From assembly GCF_900104065.1 (NCBI RefSeq), contig NZ_FNLC01000001.1:124001-188000 (forward strand): DNA of 64,000 nt, read 5' to 3'. Below, piece after piece: positions 23,722 through 56,460 of the stretch. The stretch comes from Natronobacterium texcoconense. GTDB lineage: Archaea; Halobacteriota; Halobacteria; Halobacteriales; Natrialbaceae. A model generated the notes under the pieces. The model was not told the origin of the DNA, searched no databases, and saw nothing but the letters and a program-made list of their open reading frames with translations. A program made the position numbers and the translations under genes. Each line of letters begins with the position of its first letter. Position 1 is the first letter of the stretch.

Positions 23722-25908
23722 TTAGATGTAGTCGATCGTTTCCGGCAGCTCGAGCTTCATGCCCTTGCGCTCGCGGATCTCCATGATCTTCTCGCGCTGG
23801 AGCGAGTCGGACATGACCTCGAAGCCGGCGTTTTCGGTGTTCCAGGAGGCACGACCCTCGGTCGCGGAGCGAATGTCGCTCGCGAATCCGATCATCTCGC
23901 CGACGGGTGCGATACCCTCGACGACCATGAGGTCACCTTCCTGGTACATGTCGTCGACGCGGCCACGACGACCCTGGATCTCGCCCGAGGCGGCACCCAT
24001 GTGGTCGTTAGGCACGTCGATACGGACGTCCTGCATCGGCTCGAGCATCTTGATCGTCCCGTCGATCAGGGCGTTGTGAAGCGCCTGTCGGGTTGCGGGG
24101 ATGACCTGTGCCGGGCCACGGTGGATGGTGTCCTCGTGGAGTCGAGCGTCGTGCAGACGGATGAGCGTCCCCTGGACTGGCTCGTTCGCGAGTGGGCCGT
24201 TGTCCAGTGCTTCCTCGAACCCTTCGATCACCAGCTCCATCGTCTCGTTCAGGTGCTGGATACCCTTCGTCTGGTCGAGCAGGATGTTCGTCCCGTGGAT
24301 GTGCTCGACGTTCTGGGAATCGTCTTTCTCCATGCCGGCGTCCTGCAGGGCCTCACGGCGTTCCTGCTCGGGCATGTCCATCGACGCCTCGCCGAGCTGG
24401 ATCGTCTCGACGAGTTCGTTCGCCATCGGTTCGATGGAGATGTAGAAGCGGTTGTGGCGGTTCGGCGAGATACCCTCGACCTCCGCGCTCGCTTCCTGGG
24501 GCTGTTCGCGGAAGACGACGATCGGTTCACCGGTGTTGACCGGGATCCCCTGGTTCTTCTCGATACGCTGGGTGATGACCTCGAGGTGAAGCTCACCCTG
24601 TCCGGAGATCAGGTGCTCGCCGGTGTCCTCGTTGATGTTGATCTGGATCGTCGGGTCTTCCTTGGAGACCTGACGCAGCGTCTCGATCAGCTTCGGCAGG
24701 TCGTCCATGTTCTGTGCCTCGACGGACTTCGTAATGACGGGCTCGGAGATGTGTTCGATCGACTCGAACGGCGTCATCTCCGTGCTCGAGACGGTCGAGC
24801 CGGCGATGGCGTCCTTGAGGCCGGTGACGGCTGCGATGTTACCCGCAGGTACCTCCTCGACTTCCTCGCGTTCGCCACCCATGTAGATGCCGACGGACTG
24901 GACGCGGTTCTTGCCCGCAGTCCCGGAGACGTACAGCTCCTGGCCCTTCTCGAGGCTACCCGAGAAGACGCGGCCGGAAGCGACTTCGCCGGCGTGTGGG
25001 TCCATCGCGATGTCGGTGACCATGAAGACGACCTCGCCGTCCTCGTCGACGAGGCGCATCTCCTCGGCGAGACCGGACTCGGCGTCACCACGCCAGATAC
25101 GTGGCACACGGCGGGGCTGTGCGTCGACAGGGTTCGGGAAGTGCTCACAGACCATGTCGAGCACGACGTCCGACAGCGGCGTCTTCTCGTGAAGCTCCTG
25201 ACGCTTGTCCGACCGCTCGAGTTCCATGATCTCGGCGAAGTCCATCCCGGTGCGCTGCATCGAAGGCATCGAGACGCCCCACTTGTAGAGAGCGGATCCG
25301 AAGCCGACGGTCCCGTCCTCGACGGAGACGGTCCAGTCGTCGACATCGTCCATGTCCTCGGTCATGCCGCGGATGAGTTCGTTGACGTCGCGGATGACGG
25401 CGAGGAGCCGCTCCTGCATCTCCTCGGGACCTTCCTGCAGTTCGGAGATCAGGCGGTCGACCTTGTTGATGAACAGGGTCGGCTTGACGCCTTCGCGCAG
25501 TGCCTGGCGCAGGACGGTCTCGGTCTGGGGCATCGCGCCTTCGACGGCGTCGACGACCACCAGTGCACCGTCGACGGCACGCATCGCTCGGGTGACGTCG
25601 CCACCGAAGTCGACGTGGCCCGGCGTGTCGATGAGGTTGATGAGGTGGTTCTCGCCCTCGTACTCGTGGGTCATCGAAACGTTTGCCGCGTCGATGGTGA
25701 TCCCACGTTCCTGTTCGTCTTCCTCCGTGTCCATCGCGAGCTGTTCGCCGGCAGTCTCGTCGGAGATCATGCCCGCGCCAGCCAGCAGGTTGTCGGAGAG
25801 GGTTGTTTTCCCGTGGTCGACGTGAGCGGCGATGGCGATGTTCCGGATGTTCTCCGGTTCGTCCATCAGCCGTTCACACTCTTGGACGATCTTCTTGCGT
25901 CGGCCCAT
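23722..25908 (-). CDS. fusA: translation elongation factor aEF-2
   Basis: A 728-residue GTPase from the ATG at 25908 ([14 protein letters not shown]); longer frames upstream are not conserved-looking. G1 is [14 protein letters not shown] (about residues 28-41), switch [11 protein letters not shown]3 [12 protein letters not shown], and G4 NKVDR. Domain IV carries [12 protein letters not shown], where the His near residue 596 is the expected diphthamide site. The C-terminus [10 protein letters not shown] is typical. It drives ribosomal translocation. In this genome it is separated from rpsG by the metallopeptidase-like gene and a 5.3-kb island. Its promoter region is shared with the divergent HEFAH-protein gene. 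Confidence 0.97.
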
Positions 25909-26129: not shown

Positions 26130-26888
26130 ATGGATATTCGCGTCCAGGGTCCAGGCCCAACCTCCCCGTTTCTCAGCGCCCGCGACCTCTTCGAAACCGA
26201 ACACGACCTCTCGTTGCCGGTCTACGTTCGTCTGCAGGACGACCCCGACGAACGCACCTGGGCCGGCCACTACGACGACCGCCACGTCCTGAACATCTCG
26301 AGACAGGCCGCCTCGAGCGCGATGGCCCGCGAACTCGCCCTCCACGAGTTCGCACACATGGCCCGGTACGAACAGGAACACCCCTCCCACATCCAGTCGA
26401 CCGAGGAAGTGCTCTTTCTCGCGCTGGCCGGCAAGAGCGTCGAACGGCGCAAACTCTCCCACTGCTACCAGATCGCCAACCACATGAAAGACATCTACGC
26501 CGACGACATCACGCTCGCCGTCGGCCCCGGCGAAAAACTGCTCGCCTATCTCGAGTCGAGTCTCGCTGCCGCCGTCGCTGACCGTCCCGACACCCCTTCC
26601 CGGCCGGGCCTCGAGCGACTCTCCGCGAGCGCCGACCCCGACATCACGGCCGTCAACGCCGCGTTCGCGCTCGCGCTCGCGGAACGACACGGCCTCGTCA
26701 CCGACGAGAGTCACCGACTGTACGACCTCGCACACGCCGCCGCACTCGACGCCCCCAACGTCGACTTCGAGGGGTTCAAGCGCCGCTTCCGGGAACTCGC
26801 AGCGGATCCCGACTCGAGTAGCTACCGGCAGGTGCTCGTCGACGCGACGCGGGACTACGTCGGTGGGGAAGGACCTGCGGCGGACTGA
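26130..26888 (+). CDS. HEFAH zinc-metallopeptidase-like protein (probably DUF5781 group)
   Basis: A 252-residue soluble protein starting at the ATG at 26130 ([10 protein letters not shown]). Residues 72-76 are HEFAH, an HExxH zinc motif in a helix ([15 protein letters not shown]). The region around residues 90-125 contains [22 protein letters not shown], which may give the third ligand. The rest is helical and acidic, with no signal peptide. I recall related haloarchaeal proteins under DUF5781; activity is unproven. The last ~110-128 bp of the gene, including the C-terminal [20 protein letters not shown], are repeated at 32031-32158, so the gene's 3' end is the boundary of the adjacent island. 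The copy here keeps the frame open to its own TGA. Confidence 0.8.
26761..26888 (+). repeat. left copy of the gene-3'-end duplication bounding the island
   Basis: This stretch aligns base for base with 32031-32158 at a constant offset of 5270. Positions 26787-26851 are identical to 32057-32121 (65 bases). Differences after that are mostly silent third positions (GGT/GGC, GAA/GAG, GGA/GGC), and the stop is TGA here but TAA on the right. The first ~18 bases match weakly. Confidence 0.9.
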
Positions 26889-27083
26889 TTCGAGAGTGGT
26901 GGACGGCCCCGGGTGATCCTGACTTCGATGCTGCGGAGGAACCGGTCTTGAGATCCAGACGGTCTGTTTTCGTCAATTGAGTGCTCATTAGACACCACGT
27001 CAGTCCTGCGGGTGTGACACTCGACATCGCAGTGTTGGTCCATGTCGTACGTCGACCAACGTCGTTCGTCACGAATTATATTC

Positions 27084-27097
27084 ATTAGATTTCTAAT
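27084..27097. promoter_or_regulatory. ATTAGA/TCTAAT inverted repeat before the exported-protein gene
   Basis: ATTAGA (27084-27089) and TCTAAT (27092-27097) with a two-base spacer lie 17-30 bases upstream of the ATG at 27114, within AT-rich sequence that must also hold the TATA box. Possible operator. The half-site resembles those at 11933 and 14158, but the spacing differs, so a shared regulator is doubtful. Confidence 0.4.
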
Positions 27098-27113
27098 ATT
27101 CTCGTAAAATGCA

Positions 27114-28073
27114 ATGTCCGATGATAGTCACGGACGGTTGAATCTCGACCGACGAACGTTACTTAAACGAACGAGCGCCGCATCTGCCGTTGCACTTCTC
27201 GGAGCGACCGGAAGTGCTGTCGCAACGGACGACCTGCAGGAGGGTGTAGTAAACGAGGTCTCACTCGATACTGACGGGTACGACGATCTGGAAGAAGCTT
27301 CGATAATCTTTTTGAAACGTAAAGAGCGCGAAATCGTCCGCACTAAAATCCATTCGGCGCACGAAGTGAACCCGGAGGGAGCAGACGAAGACGCCGATCC
27401 AACGAAGGTTAGTTACAGCCTCTCTTACGACGATACGACCGGAGTCGAAGTCACTGAAGCGCAGGACGTGGCTCGGCTGGAAAGCGGTGATTTCACGCTT
27501 GAGCGGACCGAGACTACGACGACTCTGACGGAGCATTTGCGTGATAATTCGCTACAACAGAGTGACGACGTTAAAATAAACATCCCTGAGGAACCGGAAC
27601 TTGGAAATCTCGGTGACGCGGCAACGTGGGTTCAAACCGAATCGAGCGAGTGTGGTCCTCTTGCTCGAACGAACCTCGCGATTGAGTATACGCCGACTAG
27701 CGGTGATTACGATATCGACGACTCTATTGGCATTTTCGAAACGGCTGACGGGGAGACGTGTGACGGCGAAGAGTTCGGCGATCGGTTCCCCTGTAGTGAT
27801 CTTCCGCCGGGAGTCGACTGTGATATTCCGGATGCATTCAACACGACGTGGCACGTCGACAGCTCAGACGACTCTCTTACGTCTGCGGAAGCTGAATACT
27901 ACAACAATGATTTCCCCATCATTCCGGAATCGACCGCTGATCACAGTCAAGATACGTGGTTTGATGGGAACGAACTGAACGTGGAAGGAACAGTTGATCA
28001 CTCGGGTACACTTGGGTTCCGTACAATAATTGATTTCCTCTTAGGAAGTGACGCTGGCGTCCTCTTTTACTGA
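27114..28073 (+). CDS. Tat-exported protein of unknown function (island)
   Basis: A 319-residue protein with a clear twin-arginine signal, RRTLLKRTSAASAVALLGATG, ending SAVAT, probably cleaved after residue ~38. There is no lipobox, so it should be released or retained at the surface. The mature part is acidic and beta-rich. It has four cysteines clustered in the second half (SECGPL, ETCDGEE, FPCSDL, VDCDIP) and a hydrophobic C-terminus (GFRTIIDFLLGSDAGVLFY). It matches no family I recognise. Size, Tat signal, C-terminal hydrophobic segment and a neighbouring ABC exporter with regulator resemble the layout of halocin C8-type loci, but the ten-cysteine C-terminal peptide of halocin C8 is absent. 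Function is open: secreted antimicrobial, immunity factor or surface protein. Confidence 0.75.
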   Translation: MSDDSHGRLNLDRRTLLKRTSAASAVALLGATGSAVATDDLQEGVVNEVSLDTDGYDDLEEASIIFLKRKEREIVRTKIHSAHEVNPEGADEDADPTKVSYSLSYDDTTGVEVTEAQDVARLESGDFTLERTETTTTLTEHLRDNSLQQSDDVKINIPEEPELGNLGDAATWVQTESSECGPLARTNLAIEYTPTSGDYDIDDSIGIFETADGETCDGEEFGDRFPCSDLPPGVDCDIPDAFNTTWHVDSSDDSLTSAEAEYYNNDFPIIPESTADHSQDTWFDGNELNVEGTVDHSGTLGFRTIIDFLLGSDAGVLFY

Positions 28074-28156
28074 TTTCCCTCCGATTTTCGAGAAGTCACC
28101 TGACTTCCCGAGACATTCTGTGTCTCGTGTTTGATACCCATCCTCGAGCTTTCGGC

Positions 28157-29083
28157 TTACACGTTTTCCGTATCTGCGTACGCAGCGAAGACATCTTCAA
28201 GTGATGCACGTTCGGTCTCGAAATCGATGACGTCGATTCCAGCTTCTTCGAGAGCGACGAGCACGTCGGTTCGAACGCTCGCGGATTCACAGCTGACAAT
28301 CACTCGGCTCTCGTCGACCCACGCATCTTCGACGCCCTCGACTGCCATTACGGCGTCAGGAACCGATACAGGCCCGTCCGCCAATGTGATGACGAGCCGT
28401 GGCCCTCCGTCGATACGGGCCTGAAGTTCCGAAACGGATGCTTCGGCGACCATCGTCCCTTCAGAGATGATGCCGACTCGATCACAAATAGTCTCGACTT
28501 GGGCAAGCTGGTGCGACGAAACGAATACAGTGGCTCCGCGCTCGTTCTGTTCACGGATCAGTTCTCGGATGCGAGCTGCGCCGCTCGGATCGAGTCCGGC
28601 GATCGGCTCATCCAAAATTAACAGGTCGGGCTCGCCGACAAGCGCCATCGCAAACCCAAGCCGACGGACCATTCCCTGTGAGTACCCATTTGCCTTTTGT
28701 TCCGCAGCATCTAGTAATCCAACGCGTTCGAGGACGTCTTCAGGGTCAGTGTCGACTCCGCGAACCGAACACGCGAACTCGAGATGTTCGTATCCCGTGA
28801 GATTCGAGTATGGTGTAAATCCCTGTGGGAGAGCACCCGTTCGGGACTTCACTGCAAGTTCGTTTGACTGTACGTTCCGACCGAAAACGCGAACTGTTCC
28901 ATCAGTTGGACGCAGGAAGTTCAACAACAAGCCGATGGCTGTCGTTTTTCCGGCACCGTTCGGACCGAGAAAGCCGTATCGTTCTCCGGGATGGACCTCA
29001 AGTGAGAGGTCCGAAAGGGCAGTAATGTGACCGAACGTTTGAGTTACTGACTCGAACTCTATTGCGGGAGTATCGTTTGTCAT
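28157..29083 (-). CDS. ABC transporter ATP-binding protein (ABC-2 exporter type, island)
   Basis: A 308-residue ATPase. Walker A is GPNGAGKTT (residues 40-48), Q-loop ALPQGFTPY (about 84-92), signature YSQGM (134-138) in place of LSGGQ, Walker B LLILDEP (154-160), and H-loop FVSSHQ. About 85 C-terminal residues form an extra domain with LEDVFAAYADTE, common in CcmA/NatA/BcrA-type exporters. It pairs with two ABC-2-like permeases immediately upstream on the same strand, the nearer one six bases away. Such exporters give resistance to peptides or drugs or extrude Na+ or lipids. In this setting, self-protection against or export of the product of 27114-28073 is a reasonable guess, not shown. Confidence 0.9.
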   Translation of the reverse strand: MTNDTPAIEFESVTQTFGHITALSDLSLEVHPGERYGFLGPNGAGKTTAIGLLLNFLRPTDGTVRVFGRNVQSNELAVKSRTGALPQGFTPYSNLTGYEHLEFACSVRGVDTDPEDVLERVGLLDAAEQKANGYSQGMVRRLGFAMALVGEPDLLILDEPIAGLDPSGAARIRELIREQNERGATVFVSSHQLAQVETICDRVGIISEGTMVAEASVSELQARIDGGPRLVITLADGPVSVPDAVMAVEGVEDAWVDESRVIVSCESASVRTDVLVALEEAGIDVIDFETERASLEDVFAAYADTENV

Positions 29084-29089
29084 TGTGAA

Positions 29090-30067
29090 TTACGTAAGTG
29101 ATAGCCGTCGGAGTCTGTTGTACGTGATTACCAGCGGGACGAAAATCCACAACCCGAGGACGCAGACGGCGACCGGCCAAGAAAGATGTAGCGGCACCGC
29201 GGCTACCTCCGCGATCTGTGTTCCGACAACGGTGGTACCGAAGCCGTCGATATCCTCGTGGGGCGCGAGGTGGACCTTCGGGATGATTTCTTCGTAGGGG
29301 GCCGAAGCAAGTATTAGATACGCCTGTCGTGGGTCGACACTATACGCGTCAGGGAATAGCCCAAGAGCGTTAACGGCGATTTCGTGCCAGTTGAACGTGA
29401 AGCCGATAAACACCGTGAACACTGCAGCCGCCACTCGTCGTGGCGTCGCGAATAGCGACGACAGAGCGAACCCAATACTCAACCAGACGAATCCGTACCC
29501 GATCGTCGCCGCGGAGAACGCGGCGTAGAATCCGGCTTGGGCCGTCTCGAATTGAACGAGAATCGTTATCCAGCCGACGAGGAGACCAGTACCGATCACG
29601 GCTGTAAGAATGATTCCTCTGCCAAGCAATGTTCCAATTAGTATGGCCGCGCGCGAACAGGGAAATGCAAGTACGGTTTTGAGTTGTCCGGTCGCTCGAG
29701 GAGTAACGACCGCTCCGTACCCGAGCACTAAGCCCAGTAGCGGAACGAGGAACACAAACGAATTCACGTGGAACGTATAACTCATGAACCCGTACACGGC
29801 GTAGACGGCATCGTACGTCTCCGGATATTCGAGGAACGTATACCGGCTGCCTCTTCCTCCTTCACCTTCTACGGGGCGAATACTGCTTACAATTCGCCAA
29901 GCAGAGAACCCGAAGAAAGCGATGAACAGAGCAACTAGCCGCGACCATCGAAACTGGCGAATTTCCATCTTGGCGATTGCAGCCGTTATTCTCGCTTGTG
30001 CGACTGTGTCTGCCGGTGTCGTCCGACCAGACCCATCGGACGAGTCGACGAAAGGAGCCAACTTCAC
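29090..30067 (-). CDS. ABC-2-type permease (island), second of pair
   Basis: A 325-residue membrane protein starting at GTG 30067, which overlaps the stop of the upstream permease (GTGA) and is preceded by a strong Shine-Dalgarno, GGGAGGTGAT, six bases before it. The 407-codon open frame to 30313 is a read-through and is rejected. Six membrane segments follow MEIRQFRWSRLVALFIAFFGF. A large external loop carries VEGEGGRGSRYTFLEYPETYD, and a helix contains LVPLLGLVLGYGAVVTPRATG, the NosY/ABC-2 motif region before the third helix. It should form the transmembrane pore with the next permease and the ATPase. Confidence 0.85.
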   Translation of the reverse strand: MKLAPFVDSSDGSGRTTPADTVAQARITAAIAKMEIRQFRWSRLVALFIAFFGFSAWRIVSSIRPVEGEGGRGSRYTFLEYPETYDAVYAVYGFMSYTFHVNSFVFLVPLLGLVLGYGAVVTPRATGQLKTVLAFPCSRAAILIGTLLGRGIILTAVIGTGLLVGWITILVQFETAQAGFYAAFSAATIGYGFVWLSIGFALSSLFATPRRVAAAVFTVFIGFTFNWHEIAVNALGLFPDAYSVDPRQAYLILASAPYEEIIPKVHLAPHEDIDGFGTTVVGTQIAEVAAVPLHLSWPVAVCVLGLWIFVPLVITYNRLRRLSLT

Positions 30068-30978
30068 GACAGAATCACCTCCCGTCGAAATCCGAGGTAT
30101 CCGATCGCGAGTGGACCGCAGATCCAGGCAAAGAGAACGAGGATGGCAACTGGTCCCGTTACGAACAACAACAGTGTGTCCGGTGATTGGCTTCCGCTCG
30201 AGAGGGCGACTTCGAGTGATGGATACATCGTGTCGAAGAGTGTTGCAATCACCGTTGAATATCCGTGAAACGGATGTCCGACGATTGCCAGTGGGGCAGA
30301 CCCGAGCGTCCACACTGCGCCAAATACAAGTCCGAAATAGCCCACAATCGCGCCGCTCAATGCGTGTAACCGACTGGAAAGAAGTGAAGACACGGCGATA
30401 GCGATGGAGACGAGCGCAGTGCCGAAAAGCACAGTCGGAACACTTGCCAGTAAGTGGCCGTACGGTGACGCCATCATCGGATTCGTTACGAATATCCCGA
30501 ACAATCCGGCAAGGACGCCGACAAAAATAATTCCTGAAAAGACGAGTATTCGCGCGAGCGCCTTTCCAATGTATATATCGAATCGAGTTACCGGAAGTGA
30601 TCCGAGTACCGTAAGCGTCCCGTCATCTCGTTCTGAGGCAATTGTGCCGTAACCGAAAAGGAACGCGAACAGCGGAAGCAAAACGACATAAATGTCGATG
30701 CCGTGAAACCAGTAGGCGGCTGAAACCGTGTGCCCTTCCTCGAGAACGACGAAGGTTGCCCCTTCGGACGACCCGATCGTATCTTCCGAAACCCATACAA
30801 TTGGTGCAACGAAAGCAACGAACACGGCGGCAGCAATAACGCGATTTGTCGTCGATCGACTGATCAACTGGCACTCAAGTAGAAACACTTGATACGGCCG
30901 GCGGAGGTCGTAGTTCCTCGGCCACCTCTTCCAGTAAGTTTTGTCCGAACACTTATTTGAAACTCTCCAACGTTCCAT
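30064..30978 (-). CDS. ABC-2-type permease (island), first of pair
   Basis: A 304-residue membrane protein from the ATG at 30978 (MERWRVSNKC). It has about six membrane helices, an external loop after helix 1 (VSEDTIGSSEGATFVVLEEGH), and the ABC-2 permease segment LLPLFAFLFGYGTIASERDDGTLTVL, in which a SERDDGTL-type motif faces the ATPase. It is homologous in layout to the next permease, so the pair forms a heterodimer. AT-rich sequence (30979-31070) separates it from the regulator gene and could hold its promoter. Confidence 0.85.
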   Translation of the reverse strand: MERWRVSNKCSDKTYWKRWPRNYDLRRPYQVFLLECQLISRSTTNRVIAAAVFVAFVAPIVWVSEDTIGSSEGATFVVLEEGHTVSAAYWFHGIDIYVVLLPLFAFLFGYGTIASERDDGTLTVLGSLPVTRFDIYIGKALARILVFSGIIFVGVLAGLFGIFVTNPMMASPYGHLLASVPTVLFGTALVSIAIAVSSLLSSRLHALSGAIVGYFGLVFGAVWTLGSAPLAIVGHPFHGYSTVIATLFDTMYPSLEVALSSGSQSPDTLLLFVTGPVAILVLFAWICGPLAIGYLGFRREVILS

Positions 30979-31070
30979 TAGCCGTAATCTAATTTGAATA
31001 TAGTGTAATAAAACTATACCGATTATAATATATCTTTTGAGGGAATTGCCATCTAACGCAGGATCTATAT

Positions 31071-31840
31071 TCAAAAATTAGTCGATGAAACAACGGTGGC
31101 ATTTTTGCGATACTTTTCATAGAGTGATGCTCCCCACGTTCGGAATTGATCGTGGTTTCCAAAAACAATTCCGTGAACTGTACCGTGCTCATCGTAGACT
31201 AGCACAATTACGTGATCGTCCGTACGAACGAGACCGATCGGCTCTGTGGGCCCATCGTATACGTATATTACACCATTGAACGCAGTAGAAAGGTCGATCA
31301 CGCTGCTGGATCGGATGCCTTCTAATCCGGCTGATCCGATAACCAACTCGACTGACTGGTGTTGCTCCAAGACTGTTCGATGCGCATCAAGGAATTGCTG
31401 TGTAACGGTCGGTGCGAACGTGTATACCTCAGTTGCGGATTGAACAATTTCGATAACTTTCTCGAGTGGCCCGTTCGGATATCCTGATTCTCGAATATTC
31501 ACTTCACACTGCATAAGGATTTCTGCAGGGATATCTTCGAAGCAATTTGGCGCATATTTAGCAATCGTGGTTAACCTTTGAAGGTGTTCTGCACGCTCGA
31601 TCTCCTCAATAAAATCAGTCATAGCCGCTTCTACGAGCGATACAAGACAAATTTGGTTATTTGATTGCTGAATCCACCCTTCCTTTTCGAGCTGGTTCAG
31701 ATTACGTAGGATCGTCCGTCGTGTCGCATCGATGTCGCTTCGAGTTCCGAAACCGTCTTCGGTGACTGTGTGAGCGCTCGCAATATCTCGTACCGCGCTG
31801 ATGAACCAAATAGTTTCGCGAGTGCGACACCACCACCCAT
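31071..31840 (-). pseudogene. frameshifted HTH/FilR1-type transcriptional regulator
   Basis: The frame from the ATG at 31840 encodes the start of a winged helix (GGGVALAKLFGSSARYEILRALTQSPKTVSELEA) and then stops at 31697 after 47 residues. Shifting frame by one base restores the DNA-recognition helix and wing, DIDATRRTILRNLNQLEKEGW, and runs through to the ATG at 31622 used by the remaining 183-codon frame. That frame holds the C-terminal FilR1-like domain (VIYVYDGPTEPIGLVRTDDHV; FRTWGASLYEKYRKNA). A single-base deletion near 31728 would explain this. The intact relative at 57230-58036 shows the expected architecture. Either a real inactivating mutation or an assembly error. Confidence 0.75.
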
Positions 31841-32030
31841 ATCTATCAGCTATATCGTAAAAATGTATATTCTTTAACCCTAATTGAATAAACCGATGAT
31901 ACTACGAATAGCAGAACACAAATAAAGTGATTGGGGATATCACACTTTTCAGTCGCATCACTCCTGTCCGTCGGGGTTTTGAAATAAATTGGCGTTATAG
32001 AATGGTTCCTTCAAGATCAACAGCGACGGC
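31841..32030. other. AT-rich spacer inside the island
   Basis: 190 bases, among the most AT-rich of the window (runs such as AAATGTATATTCTTTAA). No frame of interest. It probably contains the regulator's promoter. The duplicated gene end follows directly. Confidence 0.5.
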
Positions 32031-32158
32031 TCGACGTTGAGATTTTCAAACGCCGATTCCGGGAACTCGCAGCGGATCCCGACTCGAGTAGCTACCGGCA
32101 GGTGCTCGTCGACGCGACGCGTGACTACGTCGGCGGCGAGGGCCCTGCGGCGGACTAA
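32031..32158 (+). repeat. right copy of the gene-3'-end duplication
   Basis: A remnant of the HEFAH-protein gene's 3' end: in frame it reads [20 protein letters not shown] through to the same C-terminus and a TAA stop, with no start codon. Offset to the left copy is 5270 bases; 65 central bases are identical. The codon choices here (GGC GGC GAG GGC) look more like the host's, so this is probably the original end of the gene and the left copy came with the inserted DNA. Confidence 0.9.
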
Positions 32159-32176: not shown

Positions 32177-32614
32177 CTAGCACGGATCGATAATATCCGA
32201 ATCGGGATCGTCTATCGCGCCCATAGTCAAATCCGGATTGCCATTTTCATCTTCGAATACGTAAACGACGGCTCCGAGAGGATCGGCGTCGAATTCAGCC
32301 AGGTTCCAGCTTCGCAACCACTCGTCGTCACCGTCGAACCGACCCTGAACGGTGTACGAAACCTGTTCGGGTCCCCAGCGACAATCGAACACGGATTCCC
32401 AGAACTCCTCTTCGTTTACCGTCCGTTCTGCGACAACGTTTCCGTCGTCCACGACACGGATCTCGATAGGCGGAGGGTCGTCGACAGGGTCTATTGCATG
32501 ACGACGGCAGGTAATCCAGGATAACTCGACACCGGTCTCGAGACGGGACGTACATCCTGCTGTACTGATCGTCGAACCCGCTCCGAGCGAGACCAATAGT
32601 TGGCGGCGTTTCAT
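32177..32614 (-). CDS. small Tat lipoprotein of unknown function
   Basis: A 145-residue protein with the N-terminus MKRRQLLVSLGAGSTISTAGC, combining a twin-arginine motif with a lipobox, so it is exported and lipid-anchored. The mature part is acidic and beta-rich (PPPIEIRVVDDGNVVAERTV; VSYTVQGRFDGDDEW), suggesting a single sandwich domain. It has four further cysteines. No family recognised. It lies just outside the right repeat, convergent with it, so it belongs to the host side. Lower GC than the ribosomal genes next to it may mean it is itself a late arrival. Confidence 0.7.
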   Translation of the reverse strand: MKRRQLLVSLGAGSTISTAGCTSRLETGVELSWITCRRHAIDPVDDPPPIEIRVVDDGNVVAERTVNEEEFWESVFDCRWGPEQVSYTVQGRFDGDDEWLRSWNLAEFDADPLGAVVYVFEDENGNPDLTMGAIDDPDSDIIDPC

Positions 32615-32721: not shown

Positions 32722-33330
32722 TTAGCGTGCGGCAGCCGCGACGCGCTCTTTCTCCTCTTTCTGACTGACGGCGTACGTCTGGACGTCGTAGTTGGCCGCG
32801 CCGATGAGCTGGCTCGCGATCGCTTCCTCGACGGACGTGGCCGTCTTGAACGAGTCGTTGTGAACGCCTTCGGCCAGGAACTTCAGTGCCTGGTCGACTC
32901 GGCGCTGTGGGGCGACGTCGACGGCCTTCGGGACGGAGATGCCACCGTACTTCAGGCGGACGGTCTCCTCTCGAGGTGCCGCGTTCTCGACGGCGGTCAC
33001 GAGCACCTGGATCGGATTGTCCTCGGTGCGCTCGTGGATGATGTCGAAGGCGTCACGGACGTAGTTGAGCGTCTTCTGCTTCTTGCCCGTGTTCTCCTCG
33101 GTCTGCATCAGACGGTTGATGAAGCGCTCGACGATCGAGATCTGGGACTTCTTGAACTGCTTGCTGGCGTGTCGGCCAGCGGTGTGTGCGACCGGCGTCA
33201 CCGTGATGTAACGCTCGGTCGAAGGGTCCGAATACTCGATCTCGCCGATCTCCCACTCGCCGAAGAGGTCCGCCGAGACGTCCGCACCGCCCGCGGGGGC
33301 GTCCGGGTCCGGCTGATCTTCTGCCGACAT
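32722..33330 (-). CDS. rpsG: 30S ribosomal protein S7 (uS7)
   Basis: A 202-residue archaeal uS7 with the acidic haloarchaeal N-terminal extension (about 25 residues). The core has RHASKQFKKSQISIVERFINRLM, TLNYVRDAFDIIHERTEDNPIQVLV, GGISVPKAVDVAPQRRVDQAL and a basic C-terminus with SQKEEKERVAAAAR. It binds 16S rRNA 3' major domain near the decoding site. It starts two bases after the rpsL stop and is co-transcribed with it. In many archaea aEF-2 follows directly; here other genes and the island intervene. Confidence 0.97.
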   Translation of the reverse strand: MSAEDQPDPDAPAGGADVSADLFGEWEIGEIEYSDPSTERYITVTPVAHTAGRHASKQFKKSQISIVERFINRLMQTEENTGKKQKTLNYVRDAFDIIHERTEDNPIQVLVTAVENAAPREETVRLKYGGISVPKAVDVAPQRRVDQALKFLAEGVHNDSFKTATSVEEAIASQLIGAANYDVQTYAVSQKEEKERVAAAAR

Positions 33331-56386: not shown

Positions 56387-56460
56387 GGGCCGATAGCTCA
56401 ATTAGGTTGAGCGCCACTCTGATAAGGTGGAGGCTCTCGGTTCAAATCCGAGTCGGCCCA
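56387..56460 (+). tRNA. tRNA-Ile (anticodon GAT)
   Basis: A 74-base cloverleaf without intron: acceptor stem GGGCCGA / TCGGCCC with discriminator A at 56460, D-arm GCTC/GAGC, anticodon stem CCACT/GGTGG with loop CTGATAA (anticodon GAT at 56421-56423), T-arm CTCGG-TTCAAAT-CCGAG. CCA is not encoded. The 3' end from the T-arm onwards is repeated 137 bases downstream, which points to past element integration at this gene. Confidence 0.97.

What the first reader, a model, noticed from the sequence alone, without database searches (positions are those of the whole stretch)
26761..32158. 5.3-kb island bounded by a duplicated protein-gene 3' end that preserves the host gene
The last ~110-128 bp of the HEFAH-protein gene occur twice, at 26761-26888 and 32031-32158 (offset exactly 5270, 65 identical bases, other differences mostly silent). 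The DNA between is AT-richer and carries an exported protein, an ABC exporter and a regulator. This is the geometry of an element integrating at a protein gene's end while carrying a replacement end. The insertion lies between rpsG and aEF-2, a cluster normally kept intact.
Basis: partly seen in the sequence, partly recalled or inferred. Interest (0 to 1): 0.85.

Follow-up and report, generated by a model that had tools for sequence, protein, structure and literature searches.

The report
Imported island beside decayed gene copy
A 5-kb block of foreign transport genes sits beside a housekeeping gene in a salt-loving archaeon, and the repeat at its far end looks like the eroded remains of a second copy of that gene, left when DNA from a related genus was added by ordinary recombination rather than by a specialised jumping element.

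Summary
The repeat is real: 126 nt at 90% identity, offset 5270, with a 65-bp identical core. The gene is DUF5781 (PF19093). In a family-wide survey (117 testable loci) a second DUF5781 fragment in the DUF5781-rpsG interval occurs in five genomes, all carrying the same kind of cargo (Tat-exported protein, ABC exporter, FilR1-like regulator; hypergeometric P about 1.5e-6). Empty-site relatives show that the right copy marks the original host junction. So the insertion, and the foreign origin of the left tail, hold up. The proposed mechanism does not. Right copies are not fixed-length attachment scars: in G080 the copy begins at the DUF5781 start codon with an internal deletion; in G066 it begins near codon 91-97, fused to a foreign rpsG 3' end. 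No recombinase is present. Best reading: donor DNA was added by one homologous exchange in DUF5781 plus an end-joined junction, leaving two DUF5781 copies; the redundant one decayed and the window keeps its last 126 bp. The island then moved between genera (island dS 0.17-0.23 against 0.34-0.60 in flanking genes). The interval is variable, not normally intact (26 of 115 loci under 500 bp).

The parts
23722..25908 (-). aEF-2 gene, divergent to DUF5781; conserved left flank
   Evidence: ORF; orthologues beside DUF5781 in the relatives
26130..26888 (+).
   Evidence: PF19093 E 1e-131
26761..26888 (+). left copy of the repeat; its last ~45 bp match the island-bearing genomes G080 (96%) and G004 (89%) better than any other of the loci compared
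26787..26851 (+). 65-bp core identical to 32057-32121 (conversion tract or exchange region)
27114..28073 (+). Tat-signal exported protein, 319 aa, no known family; dN/dS about 0.11-0.13
28157..29083 (-). ABC exporter ATPase (DrrA-like)
   Evidence: PF00005, PF13732; TIGR01188 below its cut-off
29090..29959 (-). ABC-2 permease 1 (5' end approximate)
   Evidence: PF12679; homologues in G004, G080
30064..30999 (-). ABC-2 permease 2 (5' end approximate)
   Evidence: PF12679
31071..31840 (-). FilR1-type regulator; open part 31071-31622, N-terminal winged-helix part in another frame (frameshift); G004 copy intact, G080 has a different frameshift
   Evidence: PF08350; frames and alignment
32031..32158 (+). 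right copy: remnant of a second DUF5781 gene at the original host junction (TAA stop)
   Evidence: kin copies
32057..32121 (+). 65-bp core, right
32177..32614 (-). small exported/lipobox-like ORF between the remnant and rpsG; no convincing relative in the loci examined
32722..33330 (-). rpsG (S7), conserved right flank
   Evidence: PF00177

Best explanation
The island is the trace of an additive recombination event at a variable locus. Donor DNA with the order DUF5781 - cargo (in one lineage reaching the rpsG 3' end) joined the recipient's DUF5781-rpsG locus by one homologous exchange inside DUF5781; its other end was tied in by end-joining, either because the fragment recircularised before a single crossover or by homology-facilitated illegitimate recombination. 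The result is a working hybrid DUF5781, the cargo, an illegitimate junction, and the recipient's own DUF5781 with its original downstream DNA. The redundant right-hand gene then decayed by deletion; in the window the last 126 bp remain, with a 65-bp core kept identical by conversion or repeated exchange with the left copy. The whole block later moved between genera by exchange in flanking conserved genes. SHOWN: the repeat; the empty/occupied pairs; the right copies' origin from more than the 3' end in G080 and G066; a foreign rpsG remnant in G066; the foreign block in G080; the lower dS of the island. INFERRED: the single-crossover or HFIR step, the donor, conversion as the cause of the core, and that the window's own remnant was once a full gene (by kinship with G080/G004).
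For: (1) DUF5781 remnants in 5 of 117 intervals, all with the cargo. (2) Downstream of the right copy equals the empty site in G004/G003 and G015/G068. (3) G080's right copy holds DUF5781 from its start codon to about codon 24, then a deletion to about codon 212: local score 91 against a shuffle maximum of 26; G004's right copy aligns with G080's through the start region. (4) G066's right copy starts at about codon 91-97 with an open frame and is preceded by an rpsG 3' end plus about 35 bp; this fits foreign rpsG genes (94, 93) better than G066's own (63), shuffle maximum 31. (5) Genomes with simple DUF5781-cargo-rpsG order exist as donor types (G092, G099, G110, G046, G047). (6) G080's aEF-2 and rpsG are native to its genus (aEF-2 DNA 93-100%; rpsG dS 0.12 to G078) but its DUF5781 is not (dS 0.96), and its right copy is nearest to the window's genus (91 against 35-44 for its own genus). 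(7) Island dS G000-G080 0.17-0.23 (Tat protein and transporter genes) against aEF-2 0.34, rpsG 0.50, DUF5781 0.60. (8) Precedents: 56 of 60 E. coli clones selected for HFIR carried a duplication of the homologous segment, 109-950 bp in 14 sequenced, read as single crossover of a recircularised fragment (PMC3240628); displaced gene ends in Vibrio modules (PMC5361080).
Against: The window's junction itself shows neither a DUF5781 5' end nor an rpsG remnant above shuffle level; the full-gene origin is read from kin. Left and right copies are partly homogenised in G000, G004 and G066, which blurs which tail is donor and which recipient; G004's right tail is not G003-like although its downstream DNA is. 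G015's rpsG remnant is too short to test. A duplication of DUF5781 before the cargo arrived is not strictly excluded in the G000/G004/G080 lineage. The sharing of the ~45-bp left tail among the three island carriers is also what an element-borne 3' end would give.
Confidence: 0.68

Rival explanations
1. Site-specific integration (tyrosine recombinase in trans or lost) at the 3' end of DUF5781 by an element carrying a replacement 3' end; the right copy is the displaced host end.
For: Gene end restored, displaced end at the far side, precise empty sites; the left tail goes with the island; thaumarchaeal elements integrate at protein-gene 3' ends (PMC6563490).
Against: No recombinase in the island. 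Right-copy boundaries differ in all five genomes; two copies hold upstream gene parts, one fused to a foreign rpsG end. No fixed core; the 65-bp core occurs only twice in the genome. No plasmid or viral-contig counterpart found.
Confidence: 0.14
2. DUF5781 was tandemly duplicated first, and the cargo was later inserted between the two copies by unrelated means.
For: Would also give a full second copy that decays (G080, G004).
Against: No genome among 117 has a second DUF5781 copy in this interval without the cargo; the foreign rpsG 3' end in G066 implies that a longer donor segment came with the cargo; two lineages would have to repeat the two steps.
Confidence: 0.1
3. A recombinase-free cassette: the direct repeats let the island loop out and re-enter any DUF5781 gene by homologous recombination, so that it moves repeatedly as a unit.
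For: 65-bp perfect core, homogenised copies in G004 and G066, recurrence at one locus in separate genera, recent inter-genus transfer.
Against: In G080 both copies and the whole left gene were imported together, which is flank-to-flank exchange and not re-entry; a 65-bp identity is short for efficient homologous excision (general knowledge); no circle seen.
Confidence: 0.08

Closest known systems
Module displacement by proposed homology-facilitated illegitimate recombination in Vibrio cholerae T6SS clusters (PMC5361080)
   Same: Homologous anchor on one side, illegitimate junction on the other, an old gene or its 3' end shifted behind the new module.
   Different: Archaeal housekeeping locus; the displaced piece is a decayed second copy of the anchor gene, not an immunity gene; only some genomes keep it.
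Single crossover of recircularised linear DNA in E. coli (PMC3240628)
   Same: Gives a duplication of part of the homologous segment (109-950 bp in 14 sequenced clones) flanking the inserted DNA.
   Different: Laboratory conjugation; here inferred from natural genomes and followed by decay.
Replacement flexible genomic islands exchanged by homologous recombination (PMC4033161)
   Same: Variable gene content between conserved flanks, sharp identity changes at the borders, exchange between lineages (clear for G080).
   Different: Here the first step was additive and left a duplicate flank gene.
Integrative elements in 3' ends of archaeal protein genes (PMC6563490)
   Same: Gene end conserved, displaced original end, empty sites.
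   Different: No recombinase, no fixed attachment core, displaced copies contain more than the gene's end.

Membership tests
Site-specific integrative element at a protein-gene 3' end | Encodes a tyrosine or serine recombinase | tested here: not met
   Island ORFs against Pfam, NCBIfam and PHROGs: transporter and regulator only
Site-specific integrative element at a protein-gene 3' end | Constant attachment core across insertions | tested here: not met
   Right copies begin at -45, -84, -126 and about -456 nt, and at the start codon with an internal deletion in G080
Site-specific integrative element at a protein-gene 3' end | Displaced copy holds only the gene's end | tested here: not met
   G080 and G066
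Site-specific integrative element at a protein-gene 3' end | Empty site continuous across the target in relatives | tested here: met
   G004/G003 and G015/G068
Additive one-crossover or HFIR integration | Duplication of the homologous anchor gene around the insert | tested here: met
   DUF5781 in five genomes
Additive one-crossover or HFIR integration | Illegitimate junction at the non-homologous end | tested here: met
   Met in G066: foreign rpsG 3' end joined to DUF5781 at about codon 91-97; in the window the junction is decayed and could not be read
Additive one-crossover or HFIR integration | RecA/RadA-dependent exchange | not testable with these tools
   needs strains
Replacement flexible genomic island | Alternative gene content between the same conserved flanks | tested here: met
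   DUF5781-rpsG distance ranges from under 100 bp to nearly 10 kb; 26 of 115 under 500 bp
Replacement flexible genomic island | New content replaces the old | tested here: not met
   In G004 and G015 the old downstream DNA is kept behind the island

The most novel reading that the evidence does not exclude
DUF5781 serves as a recurrent homology port: a recombinase-free cassette of exporter genes carries DUF5781 sequence, enters any haloarchaeal DUF5781 by single crossover, restores the gene each time and can loop out again through the direct repeat.
Probability: 0.1. Interest if true: 0.65.

Novelty: new member of a known kind. Interest (0 to 1): 0.4.

Why it matters
It separates two look-alikes: a gene-end duplication that signals a site-specific element, and one that is the eroded stump of a whole redundant gene left by additive recombination. 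Catalogues of genomic islands that use 'regenerated gene end plus displaced fragment' as proof of an integrase would call this locus wrongly. It also gives a natural haloarchaeal case in which foreign genes were added, not swapped, at a conserved locus and then passed between genera.

Tried and rejected
tRNA as target: the only tRNA in the window is at 56387, far away. DNA match of the island to phages: none; to plasmids: only ABC ATPase similarity. DUF5781 or the Tat protein on plasmids: none. DUF5781 in viral contigs: none. rpsG or DUF5781 5' remnant in the window's own junction: not above shuffles. rpsG remnant in G015: suggestive by eye, not testable. The Tat protein: no Pfam, NCBIfam, PHROG or PDB relative; an AlphaFold model from two sequences was useless (mean pLDDT 30), so no fold search was made.

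Full report
OBSERVATION. The window holds a direct repeat, 26761-26886 and 32031-32156, 126 nt at 90% identity, offset exactly 5270. The longest identical run is 65 bp (26787-26851 = 32057-32121). Mismatches avoid this core: 0 of 65 against 13 of 63 flanking positions, Fisher P 5e-5. Seven of nine differing sense codons are synonymous; the stops differ (TGA left, TAA right). The gene is DUF5781, PF19093, present in 124 of 125 genomes of the family. Between the copies lie a Tat-signal protein without known family, an ABC ATPase, two ABC-2 permeases and a FilR1-type regulator.

SURVEY. I took the DUF5781-to-rpsG interval from 118 family genomes and the window, 117 loci of which were testable. 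A second DUF5781 piece is found in the interval in exactly five: the window, G004 (same genus; Halobiforma nitratireducens by contig), G080 (another genus), and G015 and G066 (a third genus). All five carry the same kind of cargo; a Tat-protein gene lies in this interval in ten genomes, so the chance of five in five is about 1.5e-6 if loci were independent (they are partly related, so this is a guide only). Searching the intervals with all DUF5781 and rpsG genes gave no other hit. The interval is not normally intact: 26 of 115 loci are under 500 bp, 73 have 2 kb or more.

DIRECTION. The DNA right of the right copy is the original downstream DNA. In G004 it aligns with G003 from 59 nt before the stop to 2.5 kb beyond, 84% over 2583 columns; in G015 with G068 from 46 nt before the stop to 1.25 kb beyond, 84%, including a shared TAG stop. 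The last ~45 bp of the left gene in the window, G080 and G004 resemble each other (89-96%) more than any of the other loci, although upstream parts of G004's gene are G003-like (90-93% over most 100-bp blocks). So an insertion with an imported gene tail is right.

WHY NOT A SITE-SPECIFIC ELEMENT. The right copies have no common boundary: about 45 nt in G015, 84 in G004, 126 in the window, about 456 in G066. In G080 the right copy begins at the DUF5781 start codon, runs to about codon 24 and jumps by internal deletion to about codon 212 (local score 91; shuffle maximum 26). G004's right copy shares the upstream sequence and start region with G080's. In G066 the right copy is an open frame from about codon 91-97 and is preceded by an rpsG 3' end with about 35 bp of its downstream DNA; this stub fits rpsG of other genera (scores 94, 93) better than G066's own rpsG (63), shuffle maximum 31. 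These are remnants of a second, longer DUF5781 gene, and in one lineage of a donor segment reaching rpsG. No recombinase is present, and the core has no third copy in the genome.

MECHANISM. Donor DNA of the order DUF5781-cargo(-rpsG) exists as a chromosomal arrangement in other genera (G092, G099, G110, G046, G047). One homologous exchange in DUF5781 plus an end-joined junction gives: hybrid DUF5781, cargo, junction, old DUF5781, old downstream DNA. A laboratory precedent is E. coli conjugation, where 56 of 60 clones selected for one-sided recombination carried a duplication of the homologous segment (109-950 bp in the 14 sequenced), read by the authors as a single crossover of a recircularised fragment (PMC3240628). 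A natural precedent is the displacement of effector genes in Vibrio cholerae (PMC5361080). Haloarchaea mate by cell fusion (PMC5496957, abstract) and show efficient gene conversion (PMC8223754), which fits the homogenised core. These steps are inferred, not shown.

SPREAD. G080's aEF-2 is 93-100% identical in DNA, per 100-bp block, to three relatives of its genus, and its rpsG has dS 0.12 to G078, but its DUF5781 has dS 0.96 to G078. Its right copy is nearest to G004 (score 91 against 35-44 for its own genus). So both copies and the cargo came in together. Between the window and G080 the Tat-protein and transporter genes have dS 0.17-0.23, the flanking genes 0.34 (aEF-2), 0.50 (rpsG) and 0.60 (DUF5781). 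The cargo genes other than the regulator and permease 2 have dN/dS of about 0.10-0.19, so they are kept by selection. The regulator's DNA-binding part is frameshifted in the window and, differently, in G080, but intact in G004.

LIMITS. The window's own junction has lost any 5' or rpsG remnant; its reading rests on its kin. Homogenisation of the copies blurs which tail came from which parent; G004's right tail is not G003-like. A prior tandem duplication and a homology-driven cassette are less likely but open.

FUNCTION OF THE CARGO. An exported protein with its own ABC exporter and regulator could be a secreted antagonist with export or self-protection (the ATPase scores against lantibiotic-protection and DrrA models below their cut-offs). 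This is a guess; no structure or family supports it.

Noticed in passing
31622-31840 (-): The FilR1-type regulator is frameshifted in its winged-helix part in the window and at a different base in G080, but intact in G004: the regulator is being lost while transporter genes stay under selection.
   Followed up: partly
L176 8347-8700 and L182 1833-2372 (G057): DUF5781 is split between two contigs in G057: codons 1-118 followed by what looks like a TnpB-type ORF, codons 72-252 beside rpsG elsewhere, with a 129-bp overlap 100% identical; a rearrangement or an assembly fault.
   Followed up: partly
L172 4453-5633 (G066): About 1.2 kb of extra DNA between aEF-2 and DUF5781 in G066, against about 180 bp in most relatives.
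   Followed up: no
L064, about 0.1-2 kb after the right copy (G080): A gene in the DUF5781-rpsG interval of G080 looks interrupted by an insertion sequence with a transposase-like reading; read by eye only.
   Followed up: no
32177-32614 (-): Small lipobox-bearing exported ORF between the right copy and rpsG with no convincing relative in any locus examined.
   Followed up: partly
L179 8388-13119 (G178), L178 2779-6485 (G018): The same kind of module (Tat protein, two permeases, ATPase; FilR1 in G178) lies with no DUF5781 or rpsG in the fetched region, so it is not tied to this locus.
   Followed up: partly
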